Source: Bacteroidales bacterium
Lineage (GTDB): Bacteria > Bacteroidota > Bacteroidia > Bacteroidales > Tenuifilaceae
Assembly: GCA_017524185.1 (NCBI GenBank)
Contig: JAFWUG010000054.1
Coordinates: 1-32,225, forward strand
Length of the DNA: 32,225 nucleotides
Reading direction: 5' to 3'
Positions 278-20,723 of this stretch are shown in pieces. The position numbers and the translations under genes are program-made. The notes beneath the pieces are model-generated. The model ran no database searches. It saw nothing but the letters and a program-made list of their open reading frames with translations, and was not told the DNA's origin. Each line of letters begins with the position of its first letter. Position 1 is the stretch's first letter.

Positions 278-285
278 TAATTTTG
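278..285 (+). promoter_or_regulatory. Bacteroidota -7 promoter box for the PKD lipoprotein operon
   Basis: Plus-strand TAATTTTG matches TAnnTTTG. It is 45 nt upstream of the ATG at 330, giving a predicted leader of about 40 nt. The leader holds a small possible hairpin (GCACT-CGA-AGTGC, 301-313). No convincing -33 element is seen. Confidence 0.5.
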
Positions 286-329: not shown

Positions 330-1721
330 ATGAAACTCGACCTGCACATAGCCGCTGCTTGTAGGGTTGCGCATTGTTATGCGTGCCGTACTTGGGTTTG
401 GCTGTTGGTATGCTGTGTGTTGGTGGCGTGTCTGCGCGAAACGCCAATGCCCATTGAGTCGAGGTTTGAAATAGTTGTGGCCGATGACCGTTCGTCGCCT
501 GTGGAGGTTAGTTTTATCAATGAAAGCTATGGGGCGGAGCAATACGAATGGACGTTTGAGGGCGGTCAGCCCAGCAGCGCAACGGAGAGAAATCCCGGCA
601 AAGTTGTGTTTGCCAATCCTGGTAGCCATCAAATTACGTTGCGCGTGTGGAATAGCGTTGAAGAGCGTGTTTGCCAACAAACGCTGCACGTGGATTCATC
701 TCTAACTGCTGATTTCGATTTTAACATTGCAATTAATGATTTTGCACCGGGCGTTGTAACTTTAAATAATAGGAGCACTGGCGGCAGTCGCTTCCAATGG
801 ACGTTTGAGGGAGGACAGCCTGCCACATCGGATTTGCAGCATCCTGGGTCTGTTATTTTCGCTCAGGGTGGCGAGCATCGTATTGGGCTAAAAATATACA
901 GCGAAAGTCATTGTGTTGAATGTTGCAAAACTGTAGTTCTGCGCCCACCATTGCAGGCAGCGTTTTCGTTGTTGCCTCTTGGCATTGATACCGATTGGGA
1001 AGCTCCGCTTACGCTGATTATTGTTAATAAAACCACTAGCGCAACCACTTACCATTGGAGCTGTAGCGATGCTGAGGTGCGCAGCTCAAGCGATAGTGCT
1101 ACCTCGGTGTATTTCAAAAATCCAGGCATTTATAACATAGAACTCGAAGCTAGCAATGGTAAGGATATCCAGCATGTTTCGCAACAAGTTGTAATAAAAC
1201 CAAATACAGGAATAATAGAACATAGCAATTTAAAATTTGGTATAAAAAGCGCTTACAACACCTTGGGCTGTTTTTATGCAACCAAAGCAGGTTGCGTGCT
1301 TTCGTTGGAGCAAGCACAGCAAGATGAATGGCGGCAGTGGATTGATATTGGATTTAGTGGCATCAATGCGCAATTCAATCATTGTACGTTTTTCGCGCCA
1401 TCGCAAATGCAGCAATACTTTGGCGTAGCGATAGATGGCGCACAAAATGCTGTTGTAATCAACAATCCGCAGCTTATTGGCTTTCCAATCACCGCGCCCC
1501 AGTTCGACGATATAAAACAACCGTCAGACTTCGACCAATTCGACGATGCATGGGAACGTACAGCAGGCGCATATTTTGGCCTGACCGACGCAGAGCATTA
1601 TGTATTGCTTCGCATGGCCGATATGAGGCGGGGAATTATTAGAATTAAGCAGTTTATGGGCAATGGCGATGCATCGTATATTGTAGCCGATATAAAGATG
1701 GAAAAAAGGGATGGAGAGTAA
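330..1721 (+). CDS. PKD-repeat lipoprotein, function unknown
   Basis: This 463-aa protein has a long basic N-region, a hydrophobic stretch (about 22-33) and a lipobox LVAC with the acylated Cys at 34, so it is probably an outer-membrane-anchored lipoprotein. Three PKD-like beta-sandwich repeats follow at about 45-122, 127-205 and 210-290. The first two share a W-T-F-E-G-G-Q-P core and a late G-x-H-x-I-x-L strand; the third is diverged (YHWSC). PKD folds usually serve adhesion or spacing on the cell surface. The C-terminal 170 residues, rich in aromatics and Asp, match nothing I recognise. It is the first gene of a tight operon, with 3 nt to the next start. The function is unknown; a surface-binding role is inference. 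Confidence 0.85.
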   Translation: MKLDLHIAAACRVAHCYACRTWVWLLVCCVLVACLRETPMPIESRFEIVVADDRSSPVEVSFINESYGAEQYEWTFEGGQPSSATERNPGKVVFANPGSHQITLRVWNSVEERVCQQTLHVDSSLTADFDFNIAINDFAPGVVTLNNRSTGGSRFQWTFEGGQPATSDLQHPGSVIFAQGGEHRIGLKIYSESHCVECCKTVVLRPPLQAAFSLLPLGIDTDWEAPLTLIIVNKTTSATTYHWSCSDAEVRSSSDSATSVYFKNPGIYNIELEASNGKDIQHVSQQVVIKPNTGIIEHSNLKFGIKSAYNTLGCFYATKAGCVLSLEQAQQDEWRQWIDIGFSGINAQFNHCTFFAPSQMQQYFGVAIDGAQNAVVINNPQLIGFPITAPQFDDIKQPSDFDQFDDAWERTAGAYFGLTDAEHYVLLRMADMRRGIIRIKQFMGNGDASYIVADIKMEKRDGE

Positions 1722-1724
1722 AAT

Positions 1725-3395
1725 ATGAAATTGCAAAAATTATTTTTATTATTTATATGTCTTTTTATGGGAGAACAGTTATATAGCCAAGATATTGAAA
1801 ATGTTTTCAATCGTGATGCTATTTTGCAGCGTCGTCCGCTGAAGTTTAGCGGTAATTTGTCGGCCAATATTACGCATATTCATAGCAAACCTCCCGACAG
1901 CCGTCCACCATTAACATATCAGTTAAATGGTACGCTTAATACCACGATTTTTGAGTCTTTTAGTATTCCTGTTACCGTAAATTTAAATAATTACGGCAGC
2001 AATGTACAATATCCTCAGTTGCCCAACCGTTTGGCGCTGCATCCGAAATATAAATGGGTTCAAACGCACATTGGTGATGTTTCCATGACCTTTGGTCCTT
2101 ACACGCTCAATGGGCATCAGTTCACGGGCGTAGGGGTGGAACTAACGCCTAATCGTTGGCACATAGCAGCCATGGGTGGTAGGCTGCTTCGCAGGGTTGA
2201 TTTAGACACATCCAGCACGGCTCCCCAGCCCAACTACGAACGCTGGGGCTACGGCCTAAAAACACGCTACGATGCCAATAGGTTCGCCATCGGTGCTACT
2301 TTTTTTGCAGCTCAAGACCGAGCCAATCCCATCATGTTCGAGTTCGATTCTTTGACCATATTTCCGCAGAGCAATATCGCCACAAGCATCGAAGGTAAAG
2401 CAAAGATAATCAATAATTTGGAACTGTCGGCAGAATATGCCCTTAGCATCCTACAGCGCGACGTTAGGATTGCGTTCCGTAACTATTACCATGCATTGAC
2501 AGGAAGTATTTCATATACATTTTGGGGCAATACTATTGGAGCGAAGTACGAGCGCATAAGCCCTGAATATAAAACCTTGGGCGCATATTATTTTAACAAC
2601 GACTACGAGAATATCACGTTGAATTATAGCCGAAAATTGTTCACTAACACCCTGTCGATTGCGCTTAGCGGGGGGATACAGCGCGACGATTTGTACAATG
2701 TTAGAGCCGAGAAAACCATTCGTTTCGTTGGCTCTGCCAATATGGAATGGACTCCCAACGACCGACTGACGGCATCGCTTGACGCATCGAGCTTTAATAG
2801 TCATCGCAACATGAAATCAAATTTCGACTATATCAATGAGCAAACCCCATACGATAATTTAGATACTTTGGAATTTACGCAAATAAGCAATAGTTTTAAT
2901 TTGGGAGTTAATTATAAACTTTTTAAGAACGAAAAACAAACGCATACCATGTCGTTCACAGCATGCCTAAATGAGGCCGCCGATAGACACGATGCTTATA
3001 TCATACCAGGCAACTTAACCCGTTTTGTAAATTCAAGCACTGCCTACAACATGCAACTGTCCGCAACATCGATAGTTTTGGCTGTAAACATGAGCAACCA
3101 CTATTCGCAGCGCAAGAATTCGCTCACTTGGGGACCGTCGCTCAATGTAACGCAGCATTTGTTTAAAAATGCGCTTAATATCGGTATGTCTGTTTCGTAC
3201 AATCAAACCTATATTGAGAAATTGATTACGGCCAACATTTATAATACAAGACTCAATGTTGGCTATAAATTTTTTAAAAAGCATAATCTAACTGCTATTT
3301 TGAACTATCAATTCCGGCGTCTTCGCGAGGGCGATACGCCTGAATATCATGCTTTAATCAGCCAATTGTCCTATAGTTACTCATTTGGGGATTAA
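1725..3395 (+). CDS. predicted outer-membrane beta-barrel protein, function unknown
   Basis: This 556-aa protein has a cleavable signal peptide (MKLQKLFLLFICLFMGEQLYSQ). The rest alternates polar and hydrophobic or aromatic residues, with many N/Y/T-rich strands such as SLNVTQHLF, LNVGYKFF and LSYSYSF, typical of a large outer-membrane barrel of roughly 20 strands. It has no TonB plug motifs and is much longer than PorP/SprF barrels (about 300 aa). The last strand ends SYSFGD, so the terminal aromatic is two residues from the end. It begins 3 nt after the PKD lipoprotein gene and lies 18 nt before the giant secreted protein, so the three are probably co-transcribed. A translocation or anchoring role for its partners is only inference. 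Confidence 0.8.
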   Translation: MKLQKLFLLFICLFMGEQLYSQDIENVFNRDAILQRRPLKFSGNLSANITHIHSKPPDSRPPLTYQLNGTLNTTIFESFSIPVTVNLNNYGSNVQYPQLPNRLALHPKYKWVQTHIGDVSMTFGPYTLNGHQFTGVGVELTPNRWHIAAMGGRLLRRVDLDTSSTAPQPNYERWGYGLKTRYDANRFAIGATFFAAQDRANPIMFEFDSLTIFPQSNIATSIEGKAKIINNLELSAEYALSILQRDVRIAFRNYYHALTGSISYTFWGNTIGAKYERISPEYKTLGAYYFNNDYENITLNYSRKLFTNTLSIALSGGIQRDDLYNVRAEKTIRFVGSANMEWTPNDRLTASLDASSFNSHRNMKSNFDYINEQTPYDNLDTLEFTQISNSFNLGVNYKLFKNEKQTHTMSFTACLNEAADRHDAYIIPGNLTRFVNSSTAYNMQLSATSIVLAVNMSNHYSQRKNSLTWGPSLNVTQHLFKNALNIGMSVSYNQTYIEKLITANIYNTRLNVGYKFFKKHNLTAILNYQFRRLREGDTPEYHALISQLSYSYSFGD

Positions 3396-3413
3396 ATTAC
3401 AACTACGACGACC

Positions 3414-6400
3414 ATGAAGATAAGTTTACATGTTCCGAAACGATTGCTTGGCCTGAGTTTAACGGCTATTTTGATATTTTTTGGCGCAATATCATCATTT
3501 GCCCAAAACGCTGGTCTGTCGCAACTGCAAGGGCTATTTGAAATAATTCAGAGCAGCAATTCCTACGTAGAAAGCTTGGATACTGACGGCGATAGCGATA
3601 TTTATTTGCCCGTTGGCATGAAACGCACAGTGGGCGGCATGGAAGTTGCAATCGCCATAAATCGTGTAAAACAGCACATGCAATCGTCGGAGGTGGGCGT
3701 ATATGCCCGCGTTGTTATCCCGCAGGGCGTTGATGGTAATCGGCTGGTACTTTTCTTTGGAGTGGAGGGGGTAAAGTGTTCGCATACAGGTGGATTGCCG
3801 TCAGTAGATAATTTAAAACTTACGCTGTTGCACGATGTTAGCATTCCGTTCAACAATGGCAACACCTCCATTGTGTTAAAGGGTAGCAGCACAGCACGTA
3901 GCAATACCTACATCACCATAAGTTGCAACGGATTCGAAACAATGGCCTTGGATGCCGAGGTGCATTTCCCAAAAAGTTTGATGGTGAATGCGTCAAATCC
4001 CAGTGAGCAGGTCATTGGGCGTTTCCAAACTGTGGTGAAAGACTGGGACGACATGCTTGTTGCTCTTAACCTGCCCGATTTTCAAATTGTTGGTCTGACC
4101 GATTATATCTTTTCGCTCGAAGATGTAGTGCTGGACTTTAGCAGCACGCGTAATGCTGATGGTATGTCGTTCCCGATTCAATATCAGAATTATATCCCCG
4201 ACGACGCAAATCTATGGCGCGGTGTATATGCGCAACGCGTTTCGCTAACCCTGCCTGAGGCATTTTCAAAAGCAAGCGTATCGGCGCAAAATATGCTCAT
4301 CGACGATAATGGCATCACTGGCATTTTTGCTGCCGACAATGTGCTGCCGCTTGAACAGGGCTCTGCCGACGGATGGCCTTTTTCTGTTAGCCATATCGAC
4401 GTGCAATTGGTTGCCAACGAATTGCAGTCATTATCGTTTTCGGGGCTTCTTCAATTGCCATTTCAAGGTAAGAGCAACACCATTGGTTACGAGGGTTTCA
4501 TGCAAAAAGATAGTCAGTATATGTTGCGCACAAAAAACACCGATGCGCTTGATATTGAGTTATTTCAGGGCAAGATGCATATCGATCCCAGTTCTAGCAT
4601 AAGCCTCACGCTAAAAGATAATAAATTTGTCCCCGAAGCTCTGCTACATGGAAATTTACAGATTGCAAACGAATCGCTAAAAATACCAAAACTTACATTT
4701 CAATCATTACGAATATCTACCCAAGAACCATATCTCTCGGCCCAGTATTTTGGCTGCGAAGGTGCTAAATTAGGCAATTTCCCGCTATCGATTCAGGAAT
4801 TTAAGTTGGTAAATAGCAATAGCAAGCAGATTAAATTGCTGATTGGTGCCGAGCTAACTCTTGGCAAAGATCAATTCAAAGGTTCTACTCAATTGGTCAT
4901 TTCGGCGCATTATGATAATAAACATTGGCAATATGATAATTTAGAAATAGGTGTAATTGAATTAAAAGCAAATATTGCTCAAACCATCGAACTTGACGGT
5001 AAAATAGAATGGAAGCGCAGCGATGCCGTATATGGCGATGGATTTATGGGAAAAATTAACTTCGGTGTGGCCCTGGGCGACGAGCAGCAGGGCGGAAAGG
5101 GCATCAATGTGGAGGTGAATGCAGGATTTGGGCAGAAGGGTAGTACGCCTTACTGGTATGCCGATGGATTGTGTGCTTTTCATCCTGGTGTGCCCATTGT
5201 TGGAGCACTAACGCTCAACGGTTTAGGTGGTGGTGCATTTTCTGGGGTTCGTGTGGAGCGCGTTGCCAATGGTGCATCTAATTTTATTCCCGATAGCACC
5301 AAGGGAATGGGCTTCAAGGCCGCTGTGATACTCGAAGTGAGCAAAGCGCTTTATGGCGAGGCTAATTTTGAAATACTATTCCACAGAAGTGGTGGCTTGC
5401 AAACGATTGGTTTCTACGGTTATGCCGAGTTTCCTAACAAAGGGGGTAGGGCAGGGGAGGTTACCGACCAGCTGAAACAGCAGCAACAGGCGTTTCCTAA
5501 CGAACTATCTGAAAAATTTAAAAATGCTCAATGCAATTTGGGCAACATAACGCAAGATCTTAAAAATCTGCCCAATGCTATTAAAGAAACTGGACTTTCT
5601 GGCACTCTGCTGATTCAGTACGATTTCAGCAACCGCTCGCTGCACGCCACCACTGAGGTGTACGTAAACTCTCCTGGTAATTTCATTACAGGTGTTCAGG
5701 GTGACGGGCTGGCGGGCGTTGGCGAGATGCATTTTGATGCGAACGAATGGTACTTGCATCTCGGCACCCCCAGCAGCAAAATTGGTGTTCGCTTGGGTAT
5801 TGGTAGCCTTTCGGCCAATGCGGGCTCGTATTTCATGGCAGGTCATCGCATCCCCGAAATGCCTGCATTGCCCGCTCAGGTTGCAGAATTGGCGAAAGAT
5901 ATAAAAAGCAATCGTAACACCGCCGAACTGTCCACAGGGCGCGGCTTTGCTTTTGGAGCAGATCTGAATGTTAGCACTGGCGATCTCACTTGCCTCATAA
6001 TGTATGCCAATTTTAATGCAGGATTGGGCTTCGATGTGATGCTAAAAGATTATTCCGCTAACGCATACTGCTTGGGGCGTAGCGGCCCTATAGGCATCAA
6101 TGGCTGGTATGCAAAGGGGCAGAGCTATGCCTATTTATATGGTGATTTAGGGGTGAAAGTAAAACTTTGGCGTATGACAAAGAAATTCAGCGTAATTAGC
6201 GGTGGAACGGCCACAGTGCTCCAAGCAGGATTGCCAAATCCCAGCTATTTTAATGGTGCGTTGAATGTAGATGTGAACATTTTAGGCGTAATAAAGGGGA
6301 ATTTTAAATTTGATTTCTCCATTGGCGAGGAATGTCAAATTATGAACGCTAACAGTTTGCCCATTGCTCAGGATATGATTAACAGCGTTTCGCCTGGCGA

Positions 6401-7799
6401 TGGGGAGAGTGAAATTAACGTGTTTGCATCGCCTCAGGCCACATTTAATATTGCTGTGGGTGAGCCATTCAAGGTTACCGAAGACGATGGCTCGCAGGCT
6501 CACTACTGTATTAAGTTGCGCCGATTGGCTGTGTTCGATAAAGACGGCAAGAGCATTGATGGTGCGCTGGAATGGAATGCGGAAAAAACAGCCGTAAAGT
6601 TTATTGCTAAAGAAACGTTGCCCGAGAGGACAGAGCTTACCGCCGAGGTGCGCGTGGGATTTCAAAAATGGCAAGGTGGTGTGTGGCAAGATGTGATTTT
6701 CGATGGAAAAGCAGCCGAGGAGGTGCGCACGCACAAGTTCACCACATCCGATGCTCCCAACGAAATACCGATTGAAAATATCGAATACTGCTATCCAGTC
6801 ATTGACCAGCGCTATTTCCTAACCGAGGAAAGCCCAAACGGATTCGTACAGCTGAAAAAGGGGCAGTCATATCTTTTTAAACGAGGATTCGACTATCAGC
6901 TCAATTTTTACAACAATGCAGGCGAAGTGGTTCGTACCAATTTTGAATACGACTCCACCCGTCAACGCTTGGTTTTTGCCATGCCTAAGCTGAAAAGGCA
7001 AACCACATACGCCCTCAGCGTATCATACGCCATCGATCCGCAGTCGGTTCACATCGCAGCTGCCTCTACGATGCAAAACAATGCATTTAGCAACGGCGAA
7101 TTGTCAGAAAATTTCACTGGAAAAATAGGTGGCGTTCAGGCACAATATAGCGTCGAAAATAATAAACGGAAAGAAATTCTCCAATACGCCTTTGCAAGCA
7201 GCGCATACGCTACATTTGCAGAGAAAATAAAAGATATAAAAGTCTTATACTCCATTGCCTACGATGCTAGCATTTCGTACACGTTTGGCGCACAGGTTAA
7301 GGCCAAAGAAGCTTTTGATGCCGTTGAAATACAGGGTACAAATACCACACAAAATAAAGCCCTTATAGGCATAAGGGCATATTTGACCGAGGATTTCTTT
7401 GTGCGTAAGGTGATGCCGTTGGTGTACGATGGCTATCCCTTTGGCAACATAAAACTCAATCGCGAAGAGCAGCCAATTGGTGTTCCACCGCATCAGGCTT
7501 TTAGCATCAATAGCACGTTTGTGGACGACCTGAACAGCAATAGGCTGAAGGCCGACAATTTTTGCTTTCCATTCACTTTCTGTGCGGCTGTTACAGCGCA
7601 AAGCGACTACCACGATTTGCGCAACAAGGTGGTAAATCGTTTATCTACAGATTCACCAATTTACAAGCGCTATGTAACCAGTTCGCTGCCAGTGATACCT
7701 GGTGGAAAATATAAAGCAAAACTAACCTACATGTTGCCCGATGGCACCCTGAGCAGCACCGCCGATTTTGAGTACAAGAATCATTTGTTCGAGAATTAA
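3414..7799 (+). CDS. giant secreted protein with an Ig-like (Big_5-like) domain
   Basis: This is a 1461-aa protein with an N-terminal signal peptide ending at SSFAQ (about residue 31). Residues 32-980 are mostly predicted beta-rich, with Gly-rich turns such as LNGLGGGAFSG, and contain one charged, probably helical stretch around 680-725. Residues of about 985-1105 look like an SbsA/Big_5 Ig-like domain: it opens with S-P-G-D-G, has a V-F-D-K-D-G strand and ends H-K-F-T-T-S-D. Two further beta-rich segments follow. The C-terminus lacks an obvious type IX secretion CTD (neither the CHU_C type nor the PorSS type), so the export route past the periplasm is unclear. It is the last gene of the 330-7799 operon. 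I do not recognise a named family. Confidence 0.85.
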   Translation: MKISLHVPKRLLGLSLTAILIFFGAISSFAQNAGLSQLQGLFEIIQSSNSYVESLDTDGDSDIYLPVGMKRTVGGMEVAIAINRVKQHMQSSEVGVYARVVIPQGVDGNRLVLFFGVEGVKCSHTGGLPSVDNLKLTLLHDVSIPFNNGNTSIVLKGSSTARSNTYITISCNGFETMALDAEVHFPKSLMVNASNPSEQVIGRFQTVVKDWDDMLVALNLPDFQIVGLTDYIFSLEDVVLDFSSTRNADGMSFPIQYQNYIPDDANLWRGVYAQRVSLTLPEAFSKASVSAQNMLIDDNGITGIFAADNVLPLEQGSADGWPFSVSHIDVQLVANELQSLSFSGLLQLPFQGKSNTIGYEGFMQKDSQYMLRTKNTDALDIELFQGKMHIDPSSSISLTLKDNKFVPEALLHGNLQIANESLKIPKLTFQSLRISTQEPYLSAQYFGCEGAKLGNFPLSIQEFKLVNSNSKQIKLLIGAELTLGKDQFKGSTQLVISAHYDNKHWQYDNLEIGVIELKANIAQTIELDGKIEWKRSDAVYGDGFMGKINFGVALGDEQQGGKGINVEVNAGFGQKGSTPYWYADGLCAFHPGVPIVGALTLNGLGGGAFSGVRVERVANGASNFIPDSTKGMGFKAAVILEVSKALYGEANFEILFHRSGGLQTIGFYGYAEFPNKGGRAGEVTDQLKQQQQAFPNELSEKFKNAQCNLGNITQDLKNLPNAIKETGLSGTLLIQYDFSNRSLHATTEVYVNSPGNFITGVQGDGLAGVGEMHFDANEWYLHLGTPSSKIGVRLGIGSLSANAGSYFMAGHRIPEMPALPAQVAELAKDIKSNRNTAELSTGRGFAFGADLNVSTGDLTCLIMYANFNAGLGFDVMLKDYSANAYCLGRSGPIGINGWYAKGQSYAYLYGDLGVKVKLWRMTKKFSVISGGTATVLQAGLPNPSYFNGALNVDVNILGVIKGNFKFDFSIGEECQIMNANSLPIAQDMINSVSPGDGESEINVFASPQATFNIAVGEPFKVTEDDGSQAHYCIKLRRLAVFDKDGKSIDGALEWNAEKTAVKFIAKETLPERTELTAEVRVGFQKWQGGVWQDVIFDGKAAEEVRTHKFTTSDAPNEIPIENIEYCYPVIDQRYFLTEESPNGFVQLKKGQSYLFKRGFDYQLNFYNNAGEVVRTNFEYDSTRQRLVFAMPKLKRQTTYALSVSYAIDPQSVHIAAASTMQNNAFSNGELSENFTGKIGGVQAQYSVENNKRKEILQYAFASSAYATFAEKIKDIKVLYSIAYDASISYTFGAQVKAKEAFDAVEIQGTNTTQNKALIGIRAYLTEDFFVRKVMPLVYDGYPFGNIKLNREEQPIGVPPHQAFSINSTFVDDLNSNRLKADNFCFPFTFCAAVTAQSDYHDLRNKVVNRLSTDSPIYKRYVTSSLPVIPGGKYKAKLTYMLPDGTLSSTADFEYKNHLFEN

Positions 7800-7846: not shown

Positions 7847-7879
7847 TTTGTGCACGAACAGACTTTTTGCCTAATTTTG
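7847..7879 (+). promoter_or_regulatory. promoter of the ankyrin-repeat gene (-33 and -7)
   Basis: TTTG at 7847-7850, a 21-bp spacer and TAATTTTG at 7872-7879 form a near-ideal Bacteroidota promoter. It lies in the 102-bp gap after the giant gene and predicts a leader of about 18 nt, which supports the ATG at 7902 as the start and separates this gene from the upstream operon. Confidence 0.7.
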
Positions 7880-7901
7880 TCAGGGTTTAGAATTGCAGTC
7901 C

Positions 7902-9311
7902 ATGATGAACCGCTTTCGCTATATATCGATGTATTCCTTGTTTTTGTTGGCTGGTTTACTCTTGCTGGTGGTTAGTGCTTCGGCTCAGGACTACACAGAT
8001 TACTACGACCCGCTTGGGGAGCTCCAGTCGCTCGACCGTATGCTTATTCAGTATGCCGACTCGAACAATGTGGAGGCAGTGCTACATTGCCTGACCAATG
8101 GTGCTAATCCCAATGCTGCGCGCCTTGATGGTATCACTGCGCTGATGTATGCTGTGCAGAATGATAACTACGTGATGGTTAGCCTGTTGCTAAACAATGG
8201 TGCATCGGCGCAGGCTGTCCCCGACGATGGCAACACTGCTCTACATGCGGCTGCCATTATGGGTTTAGACAGCATTGCTGTGCTGCTGCTAAATGCCAAC
8301 GCCGATGTGGATGCTTGCAATTATAAGGGTTTTACGCCTCTTCACTACTCCGTTTGGCATGGGTATCCATACCTTTCGGAATTGTTGCTGCTGCATGGAG
8401 CATCGGTGAATAGCGTTGATAATGAGGGGAATACTCCGCTGATGTTAGCAGCATACAACGGGGCGTTTCTGTGCGCTCAAACGTTGCTCGCCCATGGAGC
8501 CAATCCCAACAAGGCCGACATCAATGGTATAACCCCAGCCATGGCAGTGGCCGAGCTTAACGATACCGCCATGCTCGGGCTTTTGCTGCGCGGTGGTGCC
8601 ATTGCCTCACAGACCGATGCGCGTGGCTTCGATGCGCTTGCCCATGCCATCCGACGTGGTGCTAAGCACACCGTGGCTCAGCTAATGGCTGAGGGACAAT
8701 TCAATAGCGATATGCCGCAGAGCTACAGGCAACTGGCTCGAAGCAGCAATAGCAGCGATATTCGCAATGCGGTTGATGTACGTTTGCCGCAGAATAAGGC
8801 AAAATTCGGCATTGGAGCAGTGCTGGTTGGCGTTGATATGTGGGCGGGCAAACGGGCTTGGCATTTGGGGTTTCACGCTGGCATTATGGAGCAAAAATTT
8901 GGTGTTGAGTTACTTGTGCGCTATATGCGACGGGCAAGTAGCCCTGTGCTGCTCGAAAACGATAGGAGGCTCTACCAGGTCGATGAACGCCGCAGGTTGC
9001 TTGGACTGTGCGTCAGTCAGCATAGATGCATGTATGCCGTTGATGCCGACCGTTTTTTGGGCATTCACTATGGTTTGGGCTTCGATTTTGTGTTTCGCCG
9101 ATTCGATATTGTGGGGAAGCCCAGCAATCGACCCTACATGAATGCTATGGCTGGCGTGTTCTGGCGCAGTTGGAATCACGAGTGGCAGCTGGGATGGAAC
9201 TACACTGGTCTAAAAACCATTGATATATCGCCACATACGTTTAGTTTGGGGTTTATGTGGCTGATACCCATGCAACAGTCGCCACGCATAAAACGAATAT
9301 ATGTCAGGTAA
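7902..9311 (+). CDS. secreted ankyrin-repeat protein with C-terminal barrel-like domain
   Basis: This 469-aa protein starts at the ATG at 7902 (a second ATG follows at 7905). An in-frame TTG at 7893 is less likely given the promoter. A signal peptide ends near SASAQ (about residue 29). Six or seven ankyrin repeats cover about residues 50-265, with consensus features such as GNTALHAAA, GFTPLHYSV and GNTPLMLAA. After a linker, residues of about 285-469 show alternating aromatic/Gly strands (FGIGAVLVGVDMW, HLGFHAGIM, WQLGWNYTGL), resembling a small outer-membrane barrel of 8-10 strands. The ankyrin stack would then face the periplasm or the outside and probably bind protein. Its last 11 nt overlap the next gene. 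The barrel assignment is moderately sure, the ankyrin one very sure. Confidence 0.88.
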   Translation: MMNRFRYISMYSLFLLAGLLLLVVSASAQDYTDYYDPLGELQSLDRMLIQYADSNNVEAVLHCLTNGANPNAARLDGITALMYAVQNDNYVMVSLLLNNGASAQAVPDDGNTALHAAAIMGLDSIAVLLLNANADVDACNYKGFTPLHYSVWHGYPYLSELLLLHGASVNSVDNEGNTPLMLAAYNGAFLCAQTLLAHGANPNKADINGITPAMAVAELNDTAMLGLLLRGGAIASQTDARGFDALAHAIRRGAKHTVAQLMAEGQFNSDMPQSYRQLARSSNSSDIRNAVDVRLPQNKAKFGIGAVLVGVDMWAGKRAWHLGFHAGIMEQKFGVELLVRYMRRASSPVLLENDRRLYQVDERRRLLGLCVSQHRCMYAVDADRFLGIHYGLGFDFVFRRFDIVGKPSNRPYMNAMAGVFWRSWNHEWQLGWNYTGLKTIDISPHTFSLGFMWLIPMQQSPRIKRIYVR

Positions 9312-17425: not shown

Positions 17426-19780
17426 ATGGCATACAGAAACACGCTGTTGGCATTGTTGGTTGGCATTCTCTTGGCGGCAACGACAAGTGCGCAGCAGCGT
17501 TACACGGTGAGCGGCACGGTGATGGAGGCAGGCAGCCGCGAAACGCTTATTGGTGCTACTGTTACCGTGCCAGGAAAAGCGGTTGGAGTTGCAACCAATG
17601 GCTATGGGTTCTATACGCTTGCTCTGCCCGCTGCCGATAGCGTTGTGCTGGAGTTTTCATACGTGGGCTATGCAACGCAGCGGCACACGGTGGCTCTGCG
17701 CGGCAATGTGGTGTTGAACGTTGAACTGGAGCTCGACATGATGCAGATTGACGAAATTGAGGTGGTGGCTGAGTCGAAAACCAGCAGCCGCAGCACCCAA
17801 ACCAGCGTAGTTGAGCTGCCCATAAAGCAGCTCAAGGCCATTCCAATGCTGCTGGGCGAAAAGGATTTGCTGCGGGCGTTTCAACTGATGCCCGGCGTTC
17901 AGTCGGGCGGCGAGGGAACCAGCGGCCTCTATGTGCGCGGCGGCGGTCCCGACCAAAACCTGATAATCCTCGACGATGCGCCTGTTTACAACGCTTTCCA
18001 CCTGTTTGGCTTTATGTCGCTTTTCAACGGCGATGCCATAAAGAATGTGGAACTGATAAAAGGCGGATTTCCAGCGCGTTATGGCGGTAGGTTGTCGTCG
18101 GTGATGGACATTGCCATGCGCGATGGCCGCAAGGACTCCATTGGTGGCGAGGCGGGCATTGGCCTGCTGTCGTCGCGCCTGATGCTCGAAGGGCCAATAG
18201 TTAAGGATAAGGTGTCGTTCATTGTGTCGGGGCGCCGGTCCTACATCGATTTGCTGATGCGTCCCATTCTCAAAATGATGGATGAAACGCAGGTGGGCTA
18301 CTATTTCTACGACCTCACTGCCAAACTCAATTGGGAAATCGATAAGCGCAATAAGCTCTATGTGAGCGGATATTTTGGGCGCGACAAGTTCTATATGTAC
18401 GACAAATACAGCCATACCGAAGAATCGGTGGGGCTATTTTGGGACAATGCCACGGCCACCGTGCGCTGGAATCGCATAATGAGCGAACGCCTATTCGCCA
18501 ATCTGTCGGCCATTTTTAGCAACTATCGCTTCGACGTTTATCTCGACGAAACCTCGCCTTTCAATCATTTTCGCATCGACTATATGTCGGGCATTCGCGA
18601 CTATGGGCTAAAGTACGACCTTACGTGGAGTCCGCTCACCGGGCACACGCTGCGCATGGGCGCGTTGGCCACGCTGCACGAGTTTCGCCCGCAGGTGGTT
18701 GTTGGCATTGACACCGAGGCGGGCCTAAATAGCCGCAAGGAGCAAATATATCGCACCCTCGAAACAGCCCTATATGCCGAAGATGAGGTGCGCTTGGCCA
18801 ACATCGGCTTGGCGAATGCAGGGCTGCGCTTGTCGTTGCATAGCGTCGGACTAAAACACATGCAGATGCATCTTGAACCACGCGCCTCGGTATCGGTGTT
18901 CGTCAGCGATAAATCGTCGGTTAAGGCATCGTTTGCCACCATGAATCAGTACATTCATTTGCTGTCGAACACAGGCGTGGGGATGCCCACCGACCTGTGG
19001 GTGCCAGCAACCGAGAATCTTCCCGCGCAGCGCAGCTGGCAAGTGGCCATGGGCTACACCTACGACCTAAAACCATGGCACACCACGCTATCGGCGGAGG
19101 GCTACTATAAACGCTCAAAGCGCATAATCACCTATCTGCCAGGGGCTAGTTTCCTCGACGTGAACGAAACCCTCGATGGCAACATAAGCTCCAACGCCAG
19201 CGGCATGGACTGGGAGAGCAACGTAACCACAGGCTCGGGACACGCCTTTGGTGTTGAGTTGCTGGCGCATCGCAAGAGCGGTAGGCTGTCGGGCTGGGTG
19301 GGCTACACCCTGTCGTGGAACAGGCATCGTTTTGCGGCAATCAACAACGGCAAGCCGTTCTATCCCAAATACGACCGCCGCCACGACATATCCATTGTGG
19401 CCACGTTTGAGGCCACCAAACGCCTTACGTTCACAGCCACGTGGGTCTATGGCACGGGCAATGCCGTGTCGATAGCTGTGGCCGAGTATCCCACGCCCCA
19501 CCATGGCTGGGGTATGGAAACCGTCTATTGCTATGGCGAGCGCAACCACTACCGCATGGCTCCCTACCATCGCCTCGATTTGGGCTTACAGCGGCGTAAG
19601 TATAAACGCAAAACCTTACGCACATGGGAATTTGGCGTGTATAATGCTTATAGTCGTCGCAACCCCTATTTCTACACCATGCGCCGCGATGGAATAGGCC
19701 CCAATACCGAGGTTAATAAGCTGATGCAGGTGTCGATATTCCCAATCCTGCCATCGGTTTCGTGGAGTATAAAGTTTTAA
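17426..19780 (+). CDS. TonB-dependent outer-membrane receptor with carboxypeptidase-regulatory-like domain
   Basis: This 784-aa receptor has a signal peptide ending TTSAQ (about 22). A CarboxypepD_reg-like beta-sandwich covers about 24-105 (VSGTVMEAGSRETLIGATV and FSYVGYATQ). The plug, about 125-225, has the family landmarks L-Q/M-P-G-V-Q-S, the YVRGG block and D-x-x-P-V-Y-N, then G-G-F-P-A-R-Y-G-G-R-L-S-S. The remainder is a 22-strand-type barrel ending SVSWSIKF with a terminal Phe. It lacks the length of SusC (about 1000 aa). It would import an unknown ligand across the outer membrane with TonB energy. The DUF4249 lipoprotein gene follows after 13 nt, a common partnership in Bacteroidota. 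Confidence 0.95.
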   Translation: MAYRNTLLALLVGILLAATTSAQQRYTVSGTVMEAGSRETLIGATVTVPGKAVGVATNGYGFYTLALPAADSVVLEFSYVGYATQRHTVALRGNVVLNVELELDMMQIDEIEVVAESKTSSRSTQTSVVELPIKQLKAIPMLLGEKDLLRAFQLMPGVQSGGEGTSGLYVRGGGPDQNLIILDDAPVYNAFHLFGFMSLFNGDAIKNVELIKGGFPARYGGRLSSVMDIAMRDGRKDSIGGEAGIGLLSSRLMLEGPIVKDKVSFIVSGRRSYIDLLMRPILKMMDETQVGYYFYDLTAKLNWEIDKRNKLYVSGYFGRDKFYMYDKYSHTEESVGLFWDNATATVRWNRIMSERLFANLSAIFSNYRFDVYLDETSPFNHFRIDYMSGIRDYGLKYDLTWSPLTGHTLRMGALATLHEFRPQVVVGIDTEAGLNSRKEQIYRTLETALYAEDEVRLANIGLANAGLRLSLHSVGLKHMQMHLEPRASVSVFVSDKSSVKASFATMNQYIHLLSNTGVGMPTDLWVPATENLPAQRSWQVAMGYTYDLKPWHTTLSAEGYYKRSKRIITYLPGASFLDVNETLDGNISSNASGMDWESNVTTGSGHAFGVELLAHRKSGRLSGWVGYTLSWNRHRFAAINNGKPFYPKYDRRHDISIVATFEATKRLTFTATWVYGTGNAVSIAVAEYPTPHHGWGMETVYCYGERNHYRMAPYHRLDLGLQRRKYKRKTLRTWEFGVYNAYSRRNPYFYTMRRDGIGPNTEVNKLMQVSIFPILPSVSWSIKF

Positions 19781-19793
19781 AAAACAGATTGTT

Positions 19794-20723
19794 ATGAAAA
19801 GATTTAGGTTTATATTGATTATATTTACATCGCTTTTGGCGGTATCGTGTGAAAACCTGATGGTTGAGGTAAAGGACGTTAATTTGCCCCACATGGATCC
19901 TGTGCTCAATGTGGTGTGTTTCCTGTCGCCCGATGAGCCTATTGAGGTGCATGTGATTGGTGTAGAGCCTATTATATATAATAGGGCAACAAAGGTGAAA
20001 TACAACTCCGACTATTTTGTAACCAATGCCCAGGTGCGCTTTGGCTGCGTGGCCACGGGGCAGCAGTTCGATTTGGTATATGTCGATAGTTTGGGCGTAT
20101 ATGTTTGCCCCGATGGTCAGCCCAAGCCCAGCATCGAGCAGGGCGGCGAGTACACCCTACGGGTGGAGGCCGAAGGCTATCCCACGGCCACGGCCATGGC
20201 GGTGATGCCTCAGGCCGATTTTGCTTGCAGCAACATTGAGGGCGATGTGCAGAAAATTGAAAATGAGTATCGTGGCCATTTCCGTTTCAACCTAGAAAAT
20301 AGCAGCAGCAGCGAGCAGGTTTTTCGCGTCATATCTCATCTCCACGGTTTGTATGAGCGTTATGACTATAGTGGCTACGATGGTATTAAGGTTGATACGG
20401 TTGTTGGTTATTCCTTGTTCATGGAGTCATACGAAACAGTTCAGCCCTGTAGTTCGGTTGTGGTGCTACATAAAAATATTCAACATATTCAATGGAGCAC
20501 CTGTCAGTACTTCGATTCCGTGAGCTTTGAGGTGATGCTGGTTGATCCTGATTATCAGAAATATCACGAGTCTATTATAGCGAACGCCCCCGACCTTCTA
20601 ATATTGGGGCAGCCTGATGGGGTTTACTCCAACATCAATGGCGGTTTAGGCATATTTGTGGGCTATATCAGGCGGCAGGTAACGAGTCCAATCAATTATA
20701 CTTCCTACGATAGTGGTGTTTAG
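19794..20723 (+). CDS. DUF4249-type lipoprotein, partner of the TonB-dependent receptor
   Basis: This 309-aa lipoprotein has a lipobox AVSC (acylated Cys about residue 19) after a basic, hydrophobic signal. The mature protein opens with P-V-L-N-V-V-C-F-L-S-P and has an early G-G-E-Y-T-L-R-V-E-A-E-G-Y strand, which match DUF4249 proteins as I know them (about 270-400 aa, usually encoded directly after a TonB-dependent receptor of this kind). It probably sits on the outer membrane as an accessory lid or ligand-binding subunit, by analogy with SusD-like partners; that role is inference. Its stop overlaps the opposing ispG stop by 4 nt. Confidence 0.85.
   Translation: MKRFRFILIIFTSLLAVSCENLMVEVKDVNLPHMDPVLNVVCFLSPDEPIEVHVIGVEPIIYNRATKVKYNSDYFVTNAQVRFGCVATGQQFDLVYVDSLGVYVCPDGQPKPSIEQGGEYTLRVEAEGYPTATAMAVMPQADFACSNIEGDVQKIENEYRGHFRFNLENSSSSEQVFRVISHLHGLYERYDYSGYDGIKVDTVVGYSLFMESYETVQPCSSVVVLHKNIQHIQWSTCQYFDSVSFEVMLVDPDYQKYHESIIANAPDLLILGQPDGVYSNINGGLGIFVGYIRRQVTSPINYTSYDSGV

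What the first reader, a model, noticed from the sequence alone, without database searches (positions are those of the whole stretch)
330..7799. Three-gene operon: PKD lipoprotein, orphan outer-membrane barrel and giant secreted protein
The genes are 3 nt and 18 nt apart, on one strand, with one clear promoter, and all three products carry export signals. None is a SusCD pair, a PorP/SprF-SprB pair or a TonB receptor. The combination suggests a surface complex in which the barrel anchors or translocates the 1461-aa protein and the PKD lipoprotein docks it. The spacing and signals are seen; the joint function is inference.
Basis: partly seen in the sequence, partly recalled or inferred. Interest (0 to 1): 0.6.

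Follow-up and report, generated by a model that had tools for sequence, protein, structure and literature searches.

The report
Surface-complex operon linked to TANFOR toxins
Three neighbouring genes make a surface lipoprotein, a large outer-membrane channel-like barrel and a giant exported protein; the same three occur together across the Bacteroidota phylum, next to genes for a giant adhesin and a family of bacterial toxins, so they are probably the undescribed outer-membrane part of that toxin-display system.

Summary
The operon is real: P1 (330-1721, PKD lipoprotein), P2 (1725-3395, outer-membrane barrel) and P3 (3414-7799, 1461 aa) lie on one strand, 3 and 18 nt apart. P2 and P3 match no Pfam, NCBIfam or PDB sequence; P1 matches only PKD. 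All three stay together across Bacteroidota. P1-P2-P3 in this order recurs in Chitinophaga, Niastella, Tannerella and Dysgonamonadaceae, and usually continues into an Fn3 protein, a SprB-repeat type IX-secreted giant and a TANFOR protein. TANFOR proteins are a published class of polymorphic toxins (PMC7073777). P2 is the constant partner: every one of 28 TANFOR-positive genomes among 393 of the order has P2, against 75 overall. In 51 of 59 loci the gene right after P2 is P3, a TANFOR protein or a TANFOR-P3 fusion. P2 models as a ~25-strand barrel of MtrB/usher architecture; the P3 body matches no solved fold. The window's own genome holds the other parts on other contigs. Best reading: P2 is the dedicated outer-membrane channel or anchor for P3/TANFOR-class proteins, capped by lipoprotein P1, in a T9SS-linked surface complex. 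The association is shown; the transport or anchoring role is inferred.

The parts
278..285 (+). candidate -7 promoter box TAATTTTG of the operon
   Evidence: pattern TANNTTTG; no TTTG at the -33 spacing, so weak
330..1721 (+). P1: PKD-domain lipoprotein, 463 aa, with a conserved C-terminal domain (about residues 285-460) that has no Pfam match
   Evidence: Pfam PKD E=7.5e-15; 33 homologues in 80 named loci, E 1e-60 to 1e-89, full length; lipobox with C-x-(K/R)-E; C-terminal conservation
1725..3395 (+). P2: outer-membrane beta-barrel of about 25 strands, no plug domain, 556 aa
   Evidence: no Pfam/NCBIfam/PDB sequence match; AlphaFold2 model pLDDT 77.8; Foldseek best match MtrB 6r2q_B, E=1.4e-9, TMq 0.55, then ushers and TonB-type barrels; 75 of 393 genomes
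3414..7799 (+). P3: giant exported all-beta protein, 1461 aa; takes the slot that TANFOR giants take in other genomes
   Evidence: 46 of 393 genomes, at least 568 loci Bacteroidota-wide; model of residues 26-1195 pLDDT 81 but pTM 0.46, no fold match with TM above 0.14 in PDB by query length; fused behind TANFOR in L037, L039-L041, L043-L045 and L202
7847..7879 (+). Bacteroidota-type promoter of the next gene (ankyrin + barrel protein, 7893-9311), marking the end of the unit
   Evidence: TTTGN{18,22}TANNTTTG match; the 7893 gene has no homologue in the related loci

Best explanation
P1-P2-P3 encode the outer-membrane core of a Bacteroidota surface complex that also includes, elsewhere in this genome, an Fn3 protein (Q690), a SprB-repeat giant and TANFOR proteins. 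P2 is a large outer-membrane barrel dedicated to P3/TANFOR-class proteins; P3 carries a Sec signal but no T9SS tail. P2 holds these proteins at, or passes them through, the outer membrane. P1 is a lipoprotein that caps or docks on the barrel. The SprB-repeat giant, exported by T9SS, supplies the adhesive arm, and TANFOR proteins, where they carry toxin ends, are the effectors. Shown: gene order, adjacency, co-occurrence, barrel architecture, T9SS in the genome. Inferred: that the proteins bind each other, that P2 is a channel or anchor, and that toxin display is the purpose.
For: Gene order: P1-P2-P3-Q690-SprB giant(-TANFOR) in L102, L108, L111, L112, L120 and L122; P1-P2-P3 in L100 and L104; P3-Q690-SprB giant-P1-P2(-TANFOR) in others, e.g. 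L144, L150. P2 followed directly by P3, TANFOR or a TANFOR-P3 fusion in 51 of 59 loci with a readable neighbour. P2 co-occurrence in 393 genomes: 28 of 28 TANFOR-positive (p=6e-23) and 40 of 46 P3-positive (p=2e-27). Sampling by P2 alone: 27 of the 30 best loci have a partner family within 1.5 kb; of 13 loci from genomes that had looked P2-only, 10 carry TANFOR, Q690 or P3 in the cluster. All 75 P2 genomes have SprA, the T9SS translocon. Own genome: Q690 on C45, SprB-repeat giant on C22 (C45 and C22 overlap by 141 bp), TANFOR pieces on C45, C73, C160, C11 and C65, SprA, 38 T9SS tails. Published: TANFOR neighbourhoods are enriched in SprB repeats, Fn3, PKD and T9SS tails (PMC7073777).
Against: No interaction, localisation or transport experiment exists. 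SprA is in 371 of 393 genomes of this order, so the T9SS correlation is weak (p=0.008 one-sided). P2, P3 and TANFOR need not be directly linked: in this genome TANFOR and Q690 lie on contigs other than the window's, and assembly gaps leave their distance unknown. 6 of 46 P3 genomes show no P2 (several are fragmented or incomplete assemblies). Only 1 of the 28 TIGR02542 genomes passes the curated cut-off; most TANFOR calls rest on a model built here. The TANFOR copy on C45 ends without a toxin domain. The P3 fold is unresolved.
Confidence: 0.62

Rival explanations
1. Adhesin or gliding-type surface organelle without a toxin role: P1-P2-P3 plus the SprB-repeat giant form an adhesive or motility surface structure, and TANFOR/Fn3 proteins are structural parts of it. 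The toxin ends of some TANFOR proteins are a secondary use.
For: SprB repeats are the hallmark of gliding adhesins; most P3 loci carry the SprB giant; many TANFOR giants behind P2 are 1880-2560 aa, and the C45 copy in this genome ends before any toxin.
Against: The SprB giants here carry type A tails where one was found, unlike SprB itself, which has a type B tail and SprF (PMC10202324); no PorP/SprF match was found in P2; TANFOR proteins are described as polymorphic toxins with a tested DNase (PMC7073777).
Confidence: 0.25
2. Nutrient-uptake system: P2 is a large porin or transporter and P1 its surface-binding lipoprotein, as in SusC-SusD or BtuB-BtuG; P3 is a large carbohydrate-binding or scaffold protein.
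For: Barrel + lipoprotein pairing is the usual Bacteroidota uptake layout; P2 matches TonB-receptor barrels among its Foldseek hits.
Against: P2 has no plug and no TonB-receptor, SusC or carboxypeptidase-like domain; the recurrent neighbours are SprB, Fn3 and TANFOR proteins, not enzymes.
Confidence: 0.08
3. P3 is a lipid- or glycan-handling envelope protein with a continuous beta groove, with P2 as its outer-membrane exit, similar in principle to the LptD line.
For: P3's weak fold hits are long continuous beta-sheet proteins: LptD and apolipoprotein B.
Against: TM-scores by query length are about 0.05-0.14, so these hits share only long beta hairpins; pTM is 0.46; no recurrent lipid or glycan genes in the loci.
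Confidence: 0.05

Closest known systems
TANFOR polymorphic toxin loci of Bacteroidetes (Jana, Salomon and Bosis 2020, PMC7073777)
   Same: Same neighbourhood: TANFOR protein, SprB-repeat protein with T9SS tail, Fn3 and PKD genes, genomes with T9SS; P3-like bodies are fused behind TANFOR domains in some relatives.
   Different: The window's P3 has no TANFOR or toxin domain. The paper's enrichment used conserved-domain models; P2 and P3 have no such model in the libraries searched here and are not named among its enriched domains, so barrel and P3 appear undescribed.
[quoted passage not shown]
   Same: A giant SprB-repeat surface protein and an outer-membrane barrel encoded in one operon in T9SS-positive genomes.
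   Different: P2 has about 25 strands and no PorP/SprF family match (the four PorP/SprF proteins of this genome lie on other contigs); the giant has a type A tail where found.
MtrB (26-strand barrel of the Mtr complex) and chaperone-usher barrels FimD/PapC (24 strands)
   Same: Large barrel; best architecture matches of the P2 model.
   Different: About 10% identity over gapped alignments; no Pfam MtrB or usher match; no cytochrome, chaperone or pilin genes recognised nearby.
SusC-SusD / BtuB-BtuG barrel-lipoprotein pairs
   Same: Lipoprotein gene next to an outer-membrane barrel gene.
   Different: No plug domain, no SusD family match; PKD lipoprotein instead.

Membership tests
TANFOR polymorphic toxin (P3) | N-terminal TANFOR domain (TIGR02542) | tested here: not met
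   no NCBIfam match at E<=1; not hit by the TANFOR model built here
TANFOR polymorphic toxin (P3) | variable C-terminal toxin domain with downstream immunity gene | tested here: not met
   P3 C-terminus is conserved across the family; no toxin family
TANFOR system, as locus | neighbourhood with SprB repeat, Fn3, PKD and T9SS tail genes | tested here: met
   met in related loci; in the own genome split over contigs
T9SS substrate (P1, P2, P3) | C-terminal sorting domain TIGR04183/TIGR04131 | tested here: not met
   no match in P1-P3; 38 TIGR04183 tails elsewhere in the genome, none in the window
PorP/SprF shuttle (P2) | TIGR03519 / FadL-like 14-strand barrel | tested here: not met
   no family match; about 25 strands in the model
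SusCD / TonB-dependent receptor (P1-P2) | Plug and TonB-receptor barrel domains; SusD family lipoprotein | tested here: not met
MtrB/PioB porin (P2) | MtrB family sequence and decahaem cytochrome partner | tested here: not met
   no Pfam match at E<=1; only the barrel architecture agrees
Surface-exposed Bacteroidota lipoprotein (P1) | lipobox plus export signal C-x-K-(D/E)2 (PMC5080379) | tested here: inconclusive
   lipobox present; most homologues have C-x-(K/R)-E, often with only one acidic residue

The most novel reading that the evidence does not exclude
P2 is a dedicated outer-membrane translocon for P3/TANFOR-class proteins, that is, an undescribed secretion route of Bacteroidota polymorphic toxins that works beside T9SS instead of through it, with lipoprotein P1 as its outer gate.
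Probability: 0.27. Interest if true: 0.85.

Novelty: new variant of a known kind. Interest (0 to 1): 0.62.

Why it matters
How TANFOR toxins leave the cell was left open in the 2020 paper, which guessed T9SS from neighbouring domains (PMC7073777). A barrel family present in all 28 TANFOR-positive genomes of this order sample, directly upstream of P3 or TANFOR genes in most loci, is a concrete candidate for the missing outer-membrane part. It makes the question testable by a single gene deletion. It also gives phylum-wide families that Pfam and NCBIfam lack (P2, P3, the P1 C-terminal domain) a place in one system.

Tried and rejected
Sequence search of P2 and P3 against the PDB: nothing. Foldseek of P3 against PDB and viral models: only generic long-beta matches with very low TM, rejected. 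SprD/SprC of F. johnsoniae considered as P3/P2 equivalents from memory; the defining paper is not held, no comparison made, left open. A Flavobacterium paper on two tandem spreading genes (PMC9950754) was opened; only its abstract was read and it gives no link to P2 or P3. Whole P3 family against TANFOR giants by profile alignment: one 70-column match, E=6e-4, suggestive only. The downstream ankyrin-barrel gene (7893) as a fourth member: rejected, own promoter and no homologue in the loci. The ~300-aa gene seen upstream of P2 or P3 in some Bacteroidales (13 loci) is not in the window. Pfam scan of six TANFOR-carrying proteins and two neighbouring genes: Fn3-type domains and one reprolysin-like peptidase end (L148), no other toxin domain recognised.

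Full report
Observation. P1 has two PKD domains; P2 and P3 match nothing in Pfam or NCBIfam even at E<=1 and nothing meaningful among PDB sequences. P1 has a lipobox, P2 and P3 Sec leaders. The operon promoter is only partly recognisable (-7 box at 278-285); the next gene has a full promoter of its own at 7847-7879.

Spread of P3. In 393 genomes of the same order P3 is found in 46. A pattern search of named genomes gave at least 568 relatives, from Prevotella amnii and Porphyromonas catoniae (about 50% and 48% identity) to Chitinophaga, Pedobacter, Flavobacterium and Tenacibaculum.

Neighbourhood. Reading ORFs around P3 in 41 and then 80 loci shows a conserved operon. Its members are P3; a 690-aa Fn3 protein (Q690); a SprB-repeat giant of 1000-2700 aa, with a T9SS type A tail where a tail was recognised; the PKD lipoprotein P1; and the barrel P2. 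P1 homologues were found in 33 loci besides the window, full length, E 1e-60 to 1e-89, and in the named-genome loci where P2 was in view P1 is usually directly upstream of it. The window's order P1-P2-P3 recurs in L100, L102, L104, L108, L111, L112, L120 and L122.

Link to TANFOR toxins. The last gene of many of these operons begins with a TANFOR domain (L098: TIGR02542 E=3e-10; own TANFOR model, 57 of 121 P3 loci within the held flank). TANFOR proteins were described as Bacteroidetes polymorphic toxins whose neighbourhoods are enriched in SprB, Fn3, PKD and T9SS tails (PMC7073777). That analysis used conserved-domain models, and its enriched domains include nothing that would stand for P2 or P3.

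P2 is the constant part. In genomes with TANFOR but without P3, the order is P2 - TANFOR giant (1880-2560 aa) - Q690-like protein. In L037, L039-L041, L043-L045 and L202 the giant is TANFOR fused to a P3-like body. So the slot after P2 is filled by P3, by TANFOR giants, or by both fused. Of 66 P2 ORFs, 59 have a readable downstream neighbour and 51 of these are P3 and/or TANFOR. These loci were picked through P3 or TANFOR, so I also sampled by P2 alone. P2 is in 75 of 393 genomes; all 28 TANFOR genomes and 40 of 46 P3 genomes are among them (p=6e-23 and 2e-27). 27 of the 30 best P2 loci have a partner family within 1.5 kb; the other three are short loci near contig ends. Of 13 loci from genomes that had looked P2-only, 10 carry TANFOR, Q690 or P3 in the cluster.

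Own genome. G000 (2.5 Mb, 174 contigs) has one P3 and one P2, both in the window. Q690 is on C45 and a 1146-aa SprB-repeat giant on C22; these contigs overlap by 141 bp, so they are likely one cluster. TANFOR pieces lie on C45, C73, C11, C160 and C65, all at or near contig ends. The C45 piece is 68% identical to the Prevotella amnii TANFOR-type protein (L080) and ends without a toxin domain. T9SS is present: SprA, 38 tails, four PorP/SprF proteins elsewhere.

Structure. P2 (17-sequence alignment): pLDDT 77.8, about 25 strands, no plug; closest architecture MtrB (E=1.4e-9, TMq 0.55), then ushers and TonB-type barrels. P3 residues 26-1195 (49 sequences): all-beta, pLDDT 81, pTM 0.46; best hits LptD, teneurin and apolipoprotein B with TM by query length of 0.14 or less, so no fold assignment.

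Mechanism. Shown: conserved operon, constant P2-P3/TANFOR pairing, large barrel, T9SS in every P2 genome (75 of 75 against 296 of 318; p=0.008). Inferred: P2 holds or passes P3/TANFOR proteins at the outer membrane, P1 caps it, the SprB giant is the T9SS-delivered arm. I cannot separate anchor from channel here.

Caveats. TIGR02542 hits are mostly below the curated cut-off, and the TANFOR model used for locus labels was built here. ORF calls are mechanical. Genomes within an order are related, so the p-values overstate independence.

Noticed in passing
G000 contigs C45, C73, C11, C160, C65 (L160, L212-L215): At least two TANFOR N-termini and three middle/C-terminal pieces, at or near contig ends, suggesting several similar copies that break the assembly; the C73 piece has its own leader-like start.
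   Followed up: partly
L042:4515-18001: A P3 relative of at least 4495 aa, cut by the stretch held; others reach 2311-3153 aa (L037, L040, L044).
   Followed up: no
L148:1150-8319: P1-P2 followed by a 1316-aa TANFOR protein with a reprolysin-like peptidase end, plus a separate P3-Q690-SprB set in the same locus (Dysgonamonadaceae MAG).
   Followed up: partly
window 7893-9311: Ankyrin-repeat protein with a leader and a possibly barrel-like C-terminal half, own promoter, no homologue in the related loci.
   Followed up: partly
L130:7909-9685: P2 of Niabella ginsengisoli is split into two overlapping ORFs (frameshift or assembly error).
   Followed up: no
window 17426-20723: TonB-receptor-like protein followed by a DUF4249 protein, an ordinary Bacteroidota pair.
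   Followed up: no
L117, L121, L128, L142, L151: Flavobacterium P3-Q690 operons carry two to four tandem ~390-455-aa proteins, most matched by the SprB-giant model, between Q690 and a larger protein.
   Followed up: no
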